Source of the DNA: Spiroplasma endosymbiont of Panorpa germanica
Lineage (GTDB): Bacteria; Bacillota_I; Bacilli_A; Mycoplasmatales; Mycoplasmataceae
Direction: 5' to 3'
DNA: 64,000 bases
Assembly (NCBI RefSeq): GCF_964019765.1
Contig: NZ_OZ026461.1
Coordinates: forward strand, 558,001-622,000
Below are positions 31,262 to 34,759 of this stretch, piece by piece. Position numbers and translations under genes: made by a program. Every line of letters starts with the position of its first letter. Within the stretch, counting starts at the first letter, position 1. The notes below the pieces were generated by a model, which was given only the letters and a program-made list of their open reading frames with translations, had not been told where the DNA came from and did no database searches.

Positions 31262-32191
31262 TTAAAAGGTATTGTGAATGTATTTGATAATGGCTTGACA
31301 GGTTTTATCAAAATCAATTAAGTCATATTCAAATCATTGAACGTTTTCTAATTGATGTTTGAATCAAGTAATCTGTTTTCTAGCATATCGTCTGTTGGCT
31401 GTTTGCATGTCCAAAATTGCTTGTTCATAACTAATCTCCCCTTTTAAATATTTAACGATTTCTTTACCACCAATACATTTTAACGCTTGTGCTGCGTCAT
31501 TATAATTATTGTCTTCATAAGCTTTTTGAATTTCTTCAAACAATCCTTTGGAAATTAAACGATTAACTCGGTTATTTAATGCTTCATGGAGGTTGGCTCG
31601 ATTTGGGTTTAAACCAATAATAATCAACTTGTTCGGAAAGAAAGGCTCATGACCATTTTGGATTATCTCACTTTTAAGAAATTCCTTATTAAATATTAGC
31701 GAATTTGCTCTTAGCAATCTTTGGCGATTATTAACATGAATTTTTTTAGCCTCTATGGGATCAAATTCATTAATCATATTTCAAAGCTGTTGATTATTGT
31801 ATTTATCCAATTCAGGGTTGTAAAGTTCACTCTTCTGCTCTTCTGGAAAATTGTATTTTTTGATTAGACCATTAATGTATAATCCAGTACCACCAACAAT
31901 CACAGGGACTAAATTGTTGCTCAGTAATTTTGAAATAATATCTCTTCCTTGTTTTTGAAAGTCAGCTACAGAATAAGTTCCTGTCACAGGTATTGCTGAT
32001 AACAAGTGATGCTTTACTCCTTGCATTTCCTTTTCTGTTATTTTGTTTGTGGCAATATCTGTACCTGAAAAAATCTGAGTCGAATCTGCATTAATACATT
32101 CACCGTTAAAAGTTTTTGCAACCTTAATTGATAAATCCGTTTTCCCCGAACCTGTTGGTCCGACTATTAAAATAATTGGCAGTTCGTTCAT
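31262..32191 (-). CDS. miaA: tRNA dimethylallyltransferase
   Basis: Adds the dimethylallyl group from DMAPP to A37 of tRNAs reading UNN codons. 309 residues. P-loop GPTGSGKTDLS near residues 10-20, ADSTQIF, GGTGLYI near residue 100, and the C-terminal RRYARKQITWFKHQ. ATG at 32191 has AAAGGTAAT eight bases upstream; the ATG at 32206 overlaps that site. Its DMAPP substrate would come from the MEP pathway suggested by dxr elsewhere in the window. A structured RNA lies immediately upstream. Confidence 0.92.
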
Positions 32192-32249
32192 AATATTACC
32201 TTTCATTTTTCATTTTTAAAAAATCTAAAAATTAAATCGCTTAAAAATA

Positions 32250-32367
32250 AAAAATGCCCCCACCCGCTATAACCATGTATAAGATAAGAAGCATTAATTT
32301 ATATAGCGGTTTTATAACACTTACACATACTTAAGAATAAACTTTGTATTCTTTGTGCTTTCGCACA
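32250..32367 (-). ncRNA. candidate structured RNA with pseudoknot
   Basis: On the minus strand: TATAAT -10 box at 32378-32373, then hairpin GTGC-GAAA-GCAC (32366-32355), hairpin AAGAATA/TATTCTT (32353-32333), then two interleaved helices. The 9-base ATGTGTAAG (32328-32320) pairs with CTTATACAT (32283-32275), and CCGCTATA (32309-32302) pairs with TATAGCGG (32271-32264). Together they make an H-type pseudoknot. GTGGGGGC and a T-rich run follow. It could be an independent small RNA or a leader element of miaA. It does not match the 4.5S, tmRNA or RNase P RNA sequences I know. Confidence 0.55.
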
Positions 32368-32402
32368 ATTAAATTATACTATAAATTAGGTTAAATCAAA
32401 AA

Positions 32403-32422
32403 AACAATCTAGAAGGATTGTT
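32403..32422. terminator. terminator of the 117-residue gene
   Basis: AACAATC (32403-32409) and GATTGTT (32416-32422) with A and T runs on both sides. Confidence 0.75.
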
Positions 32423-32454
32423 TTTTTGACTTTAATATTAATAAAAGCTAACTA

Positions 32455-34234: not shown

Positions 34235-34759
34235 TTATTTTTTGTTAGATTTTCTAATTTGTAAGTTGATGCGTTTTGGTTCAACTTTAGTATCTTGGAA
34301 TAAAGTTGTTTTACGAACTTTTTGGATAACTTCTGCTGGGATTTTTACATCTCTTAATTCATTATATGTATCTTTTGTATCTCATGAACCAGTAACTGGT
34401 GCAATTCACATTTCATCTGGTTTACGTTTTACTTTTGCATTCATTCAGTGCATTGCAATGATGTTGTTTACTTCATCTGCATCTCCGTTTGGATCTGCTA
34501 AAGTTAATACTCAACCAAATTCTGATTCAAGATTTTTCTCTTGAACTTTAATAATCGCTCCACAAACGTCACGACGGTAAATAGATTGATTATGTCCTGA
34601 AACTGGTTCAGCTTTTTCTCAAATGAATTTTTCTTGAACTTCAGTTAGTTTAATACCTTCTACTACGATTTTTTTTGGTTTAGGATCACTTGCTTTTTTA
34701 CGAGTTTCTAAGTGTTGGGGCTTAGATCCTTTAGATTTGTTTGTTGTTTTAGTAGCCAT
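34235..34759 (-). CDS. HNH-fold-like protein lacking the catalytic motif
   Basis: A 174-residue protein with a basic, disordered N-terminus. Residues 70-125 follow the plan of small HNH nucleases: IYRRDVCGAIIK, then SEFGWVL, then NNIIAMHWMNAKVK. Family members have a D-H pair (GWEIDHI) where this has GWVLTLADPNG, and only one Cys is kept. It therefore looks like a non-catalytic relative, perhaps a nucleic-acid or ribosome binding protein. The family link is inference from pattern. Monocistronic; CTCTACCC upstream gives only a weak ribosome site. Confidence 0.6.

What the first reader, a model, noticed from the sequence alone, without database searches (positions are those of the whole stretch)
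32250..32367. Unassigned structured RNA with an H-type pseudoknot upstream of miaA
Two hairpins are followed by two interleaved helices (9 and 8 base pairs) in 118 bases, with a TATAAT about 7 bases before the first hairpin and a G-run plus T-tract at the end. That much exact pairing is unlikely in an AT-rich spacer. The sequence does not match the common bacterial small RNAs I know (4.5S, tmRNA, RNase P). It could be a small RNA, or a metabolite or protein sensor controlling miaA.
Basis: partly seen in the sequence, partly recalled or inferred. Interest (0 to 1): 0.65.

Follow-up and report, generated by a model that had tools for sequence, protein, structure and literature searches.

The report
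Conserved triple-pseudoknot small RNA of Spiroplasma
Next to the tRNA-modification gene miaA, Spiroplasma bacteria carry a short RNA gene, missing from RNA databases, whose pairing has been preserved across the genus in an unusual three-way interleaved fold; it probably works as its own small RNA rather than only as a switch for miaA.

Summary
It is also the stem of the 3' terminator and crosses both P3 and P4, giving the order A-B-C-A'-B'-C' ('pseudotrefoil'). A covariance model finds the RNA in 40 of 60 genomes of the family (42 loci, 31 distinct sequences, counting one MAG contig outside it). Of 24 pairs in P3-P5, 14 show changes on both sides (0 of 500 shuffles). Rfam has no match, and none was found in other Mollicutes or Bacilli. 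It is present in 39 of 39 family genomes with miaA and 1 of 21 without. Control of miaA in cis cannot be the whole story: one genome deleted miaA but kept the RNA, one has it 47 kb from miaA, one contig has it beside another gene, and in the citri-poulsonii group a second terminator separates it from miaA. Best reading: a discrete ~118-nt small RNA acting in trans, with miaA reached by read-through in the other clades. Expression and function are untested.

The parts
32373..32378 (-). -10 box TATAAT of the RNA's own promoter; start of transcription expected at about 32366
   Evidence: Sequence; a TATAAT or TAAAAT box lies a few bases before P1 at nearly every homologous locus
32355..32366 (-). 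P1: 5' hairpin GUGC-GAAA-GCAC (outer U-A pairs extend it to 32368-32353)
   Evidence: in homologues GUCC/GGAC and UGCC/GGCA with UUCG, UUAG, GNAA, GAGA loops
32333..32353 (-). P2: hairpin AAGAAUA-CAAAGUU-UAUUCUU
   Evidence: replaced by GAUUAA/UUAAUC in L006 and ACGUU/AACGU in the citri clade
32320..32328 (-). P3 5' strand AUGUGUAAG
   Evidence: Pairs with 32283-32275; 6 of 9 pairs have changes on both sides among homologues
32275..32283 (-). P3 3' strand CUUAUACAU
32302..32309 (-). P4 5' strand CCGCUAUA (conserved core CCGCU)
   Evidence: Pairs with 32271-32264; nearly invariant, C-G to U-A on both sides in G008
32264..32271 (-). P4 3' strand UAUAGCGG (conserved core AGCGG)
32296..32304 (-). 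L2 linker AUAUAAAUU, 9 nt in 30 of 31 distinct sequences, A-rich and conserved (in this genome its first three bases also pair in P4)
32287..32295 (-).
   Evidence: Pairs with 32261-32253; 6 of 9 pairs with changes on both sides, 98.6% of cells paired
32253..32261 (-). P5 3' strand GGGGGCAUU; stem of the intrinsic terminator
32249..32254 (-). U-tract of the terminator; expected 3' end of the RNA
   Evidence: long U-tract in all non-citri loci, short or broken in citri-clade loci
32204..32256 (-). P6: A/U hairpin (17 + 7 pairs) from the U-tract to just before the miaA ribosome-binding site, formed only in read-through RNA
   Evidence: z -6.07; ten loci with z -4.3 to -7.9, 0 of 200 shuffles each
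31262..32191 (-). miaA (probable start ATG 32191 behind AAAGG; the listed ORF begins at 32206)
   Evidence: PF01715 E 3.5e-66

Best explanation
This is a small-RNA gene with its own sigma-A promoter and terminator, conserved across Spiroplasma. The RNA (about 118 nt) begins directly with a protective 5' hairpin (P1) and a second hairpin (P2). Its 3' two-thirds folds into a compact body of three mutually crossing helices (P3, P4, P5), with the conserved A-rich linker L2 running alongside the P4-P5 stack. P5 doubles as the terminator stem. I infer that the folded RNA acts in trans as a stable structured RNA, most likely by binding a protein or small molecule through the invariant P4/L2 core rather than by antisense pairing. 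In non-citri clades some polymerase reads through P5 and expresses miaA; in the citri-poulsonii clade miaA is a separate unit. Shown here: conservation, covariation, promoter and terminator anatomy, decoupling from miaA. Inferred: transcription, coexistence of the three helices, trans action, read-through.
For: Covariation in P3, P4 and P5. Promoter-proximal 5' end and terminator at the 3' end in every clade. Terminator exchanged, not lost: non-citri loci have P5 plus a long U-tract and no second terminator, citri-clade loci have a poor tail after P5 plus a separate terminator hairpin, yet P5 pairing is kept in both. Decoupling from miaA: G008 has the RNA, an RBS-ATG remnant, then tRNA-Gly and no miaA, with P4 re-paired by a double change; G204 has the RNA beside an IS element and thyA, 47 kb from miaA; the G274 contig has the RNA before a lipoprotein-like gene, miaA on another contig. 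Linkers L2 (9 nt in 30 of 31) and L3 (3 nt in 31 of 31) are fixed, as expected if the helices coexist.
Against: No transcript has been seen; no RNA-seq was available. The RNA sits next to miaA in 38 genomes and occurs in only 1 of 21 family genomes lacking miaA, as a cis element would. Short spacing and shared ancestry could explain that too. G008 may have lost miaA recently. The G274 contig may be a contaminant of unknown source. In G204 one P4 pair is A-A, which could be early decay. In G210 the miaA start lies only about 20 nt after the U-tract, so miaA there must depend on read-through.
Confidence: 0.6

Rival explanations
1. A cis-acting attenuator (riboswitch or protein-sensing leader) of miaA. 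A ligand such as a prenyl-donor metabolite, or the MiaA protein, stabilises the P3-P4 pseudoknot; because P5 crosses both, this hinders P5 and lets polymerase continue into miaA.
For: Directly upstream of miaA in 38 genomes. P5 with U-tract is a terminator in the window's clade. No room for another promoter in G210. P6 is conserved in the read-through RNA of ten loci, which suggests that read-through RNA matters.
Against: P5 shares no nucleotides with P3 or P4, so there is no ordinary antiterminator. Fixed linkers argue for coexistence. In the citri clade another terminator follows, and G008, the G274 contig and G204 keep the RNA without miaA beside it.
Confidence: 0.28
2. Both at once: a trans-acting small RNA whose terminator is a regulated fork, so that the same signal sets the amount of the small RNA and of miaA mRNA in non-citri species.
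For: The two kinds of evidence above come from different clades.
Against: No direct evidence that the read-through is regulated.
Confidence: 0.1
3. A chance arrangement of inverted repeats in an AT-rich spacer with an ordinary terminator.
For: Ordinary z-score for single-sequence folding.
Against: Covariation and genus-wide conservation.
Confidence: 0.01

Closest known systems
Known ABCABC ('pseudotrefoil', class 1C) pseudoknots
   Same: Order of three helices A-B-C-A'-B'-C', each shorter than one helical turn
   Different: Rare: 51 sequences against 1688 H-type in one survey (PMC3390330). No sequence relation was tested, and here one of the three helices is also the terminator stem
Riboswitches and attenuators in 5' leaders
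   Same: Pseudoknotted conserved core between promoter and terminator, upstream of one gene
   Different: Separated from the gene by another terminator in one clade and found without it elsewhere; no overlapping antiterminator
6S RNA, SRP RNA (housekeeping small RNAs)
   Same: Discrete small RNA of similar length with its own promoter
   Different: No match to 6S in this genome; the SRP RNA is a different locus, G000:C1:8527-8623
MCS4 RNA of Mycoplasma capricolum (recalled from memory, Ushida and Muto 1993)
   Same: Small stable RNA of about 125 nt in a relative, as recalled
   Different: Sequence not obtainable here; the models find nothing convincing in the miaA-less genera of the family apart from G008. 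Relation unknown

Membership tests
Any Rfam 15 family | Score above the family's gathering threshold | tested here: not met
   No hit at gathering in the region; with E up to 10 only chance matches far below threshold
6S RNA (RF00013) | Match to the 6S covariance model | tested here: not met
   No match in the genome at E <= 10
Bacterial small SRP RNA (RF00169) | Match to the SRP model at this locus | tested here: not met
   The only match is elsewhere, G000:C1:8527-8623
Riboswitch or attenuator of miaA | Located in the leader and transcription unit of the regulated gene in all members | tested here: not met
   Separate terminator in the citri clade, RNA without adjacent miaA in G008, G204 and the G274 contig
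Riboswitch or attenuator of miaA | Alternative, mutually exclusive terminator and antiterminator | tested here: inconclusive
   P5 crosses P3 and P4 but shares no bases with them; fixed linkers favour coexistence
Riboswitch or attenuator of miaA | Binds a ligand that changes read-through | not testable with these tools
   Needs in vitro transcription and probing
ABCABC pseudotrefoil RNA | Three helices in the order A-B-C-A'-B'-C', each supported by covariation | tested here: met
   P3, P4, P5 with 6, 2 and 6 pairs changed on both sides. P4 rests mostly on invariance plus one double change in G008 and one in L006
Stand-alone small RNA | Own promoter and own terminator | tested here: met
   -10 box before P1 and terminator after P5 or just downstream; sequence evidence only
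Stand-alone small RNA | Discrete transcript detected | not testable with these tools
   No RNA-seq data at hand
MCS4 RNA | Sequence similarity to MCS4 | not testable with these tools
   MCS4 sequence not in the library

The most novel reading that the evidence does not exclude
A genus-wide housekeeping small RNA of Spiroplasma that acts in trans and whose functional body is a three-helix pseudotrefoil in which the terminator stem is the third crossing helix, so that termination and final folding of the RNA are one event.
Probability: 0.45. Interest if true: 0.68.

Novelty: new variant of a known kind. Interest (0 to 1): 0.55.

Why it matters
Structured RNAs in small-genome Mollicutes are little catalogued, and this one was kept in every miaA-bearing Spiroplasma genome examined despite genome reduction. 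The fold is a rare topology with strong comparative support, and the natural losses and moves of miaA give ready-made tests of cis versus trans action. If it acts in trans, its partner would be a new piece of core Spiroplasma biology. If it acts in cis, it would be a regulator of tRNA prenylation with an unusual expression platform.

Tried and rejected
Plus-strand reading: rejected, since the promoter, terminator and miaA are all on the minus strand. Rfam at gathering and at E up to 10: nothing. 6S and SRP models on the genome: not this locus. Weak model hits outside Spiroplasma (G026, G015, G095, G264, G531, G338): read by eye and rejected as plain terminators or chance. Pattern scan of GTDB genomes: clear hits only in S. 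poulsonii and S. phoeniceum; the others were taken as chance from their scattered phyla and not inspected. Pattern scan of the order: confined to Spiroplasma apart from scattered single hits at about the rate of the reversed control pattern. MCS4 and miaA-riboswitch literature: nothing on this RNA. Antisense targeting: not pursued, because the conserved bases lie mainly in P4 and L2.

Full report
Check of the observation. The feature lies on the minus strand, the strand of miaA (31262-32206 by ORF call, probable start 32191). All are present as described. Folding one sequence does not stand out (z -1.14), as expected when most of the structure is pseudoknotted.

A third crossing helix. Aligning homologues showed that AAUGCUUCU (32295-32287) pairs with GGGGGCAUU (32261-32253) just before the U-tract. 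This P5 is the terminator stem, and its loop contains the 3' strands of both P3 and P4. The order is therefore P3-P4-P5-P3'-P4'-P5', the ABCABC or 'pseudotrefoil' class. A survey of RNA STRAND counted 51 sequences of this class against 1688 H-type pseudoknots (PMC3390330).

Comparative evidence. A DNA search found the element in ten genomes. A covariance model built from seven of them (only P5 given as structure) found it across the family, and a second model confirmed 42 loci with E of about 5e-11 or better. On 31 distinct sequences, 94.7% of cells of P3-P5 form standard pairs, 14 of 24 pairs have changes on both sides, and the covariation score of 0.353 compares with 0.187 in shuffles (0 of 500) and 0.04-0.11 when partners are slid. 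P3 and P4 were not used to make the alignment. Support for P4 is mainly invariance plus a C-G to U-A double change in G008 and an A-U/C-G exchange in L006. P1 and P2 also change sequence while keeping their pairing. Linkers are nearly constant: L2 is 9 nt in 30 of 31 and L3 is 3 nt in all. By hand reasoning (not modelled), P4 and P5 can stack through their continuous 3' strand with P3 docked at the junction, and nine nucleotides can span the 15-pair stack. I therefore think the three helices coexist, but this is inference.

Distribution. Of 60 genomes of the family, 39 have miaA and all 39 have the RNA; of 21 without miaA only G008 has it. No convincing match was found in the rest of the order, in a sample of the class, or in a pattern scan of GTDB species. 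The model search scored only 11-14 candidates per genome, so distant relatives may be missed. Named hits are S. poulsonii and S. phoeniceum.

Cis or trans. In the window's clade the RNA is followed by miaA with no clear second promoter, and in G210 the miaA start lies only about 20 nt past the U-tract, so read-through must express miaA there. Four facts speak against a purely cis role. (1) In the citri-poulsonii clade P5 has a poor U-tail and a separate terminator hairpin follows, of differing sequence between species. (2) G008 has lost miaA within a contig: RNA, RBS-ATG remnant, tRNA-Gly. (3) G204 carries the RNA next to an IS element and thyA, 47 kb from miaA, which itself has an IS upstream. 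(4) The G274 contig has the RNA before a lipoprotein-like gene, and that bin's miaA is elsewhere. P5 pairing is kept even where P5 is not a good terminator, so P5 is part of the fold and not only a terminator. Points (2) to (4) are one genome each and have the weaknesses listed under evidence against.

P6. In ten loci, including the window, the U-tract is the 5' arm of a long A/U hairpin (about 17 to 29 pairs) that ends just before the miaA ribosome-binding site (z -4.3 to -7.9, 0 of 200 shuffles each). It can form only in read-through RNA, so it suggests that read-through transcripts are made and their structure matters, perhaps for processing or protection of the miaA mRNA (inference).

Conclusion. 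A real, strongly conserved, undescribed RNA family. Best reading: a discrete trans-acting small RNA, with miaA downstream by read-through in some clades (0.60). Main rival: an attenuator of miaA (0.28). No transcript was observed, no ligand or partner is known, and relation to MCS4 RNA of M. capricolum (recalled from memory) could not be tested.

Noticed in passing
window 34235-34759 (-): Protein without any Pfam match that resembles a degenerate HNH domain by eye (IYRRDVCGAIIK...FGWVLTLADPNG...NNIIAMHWMNAKVK). Homologues lie upstream of the RNA in the window's own group, the large non-citri genus (g12), G008, the G274 contig and several citri-clade genomes.
   Followed up: partly
window 32204-32256 (-) and nine homologous loci: Long A/U-rich hairpin P6 joining the terminator U-tract to the miaA ribosome-binding site; function unknown, possibly a processing or stability element.
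   Followed up: partly
L068 (G023:C1:651158-651239): Second copy of the RNA about 11 kb from the first, next to a broken miaA copy.
   Followed up: no
L067/L082 (G204): One P4 pair, C-G elsewhere, is A-A here through changes on both sides, in the genome where the RNA was separated from miaA.
   Followed up: no
window 32396-32429: Bidirectional terminator-like hairpin just upstream of the RNA promoter, insulating it from the preceding gene.
   Followed up: no
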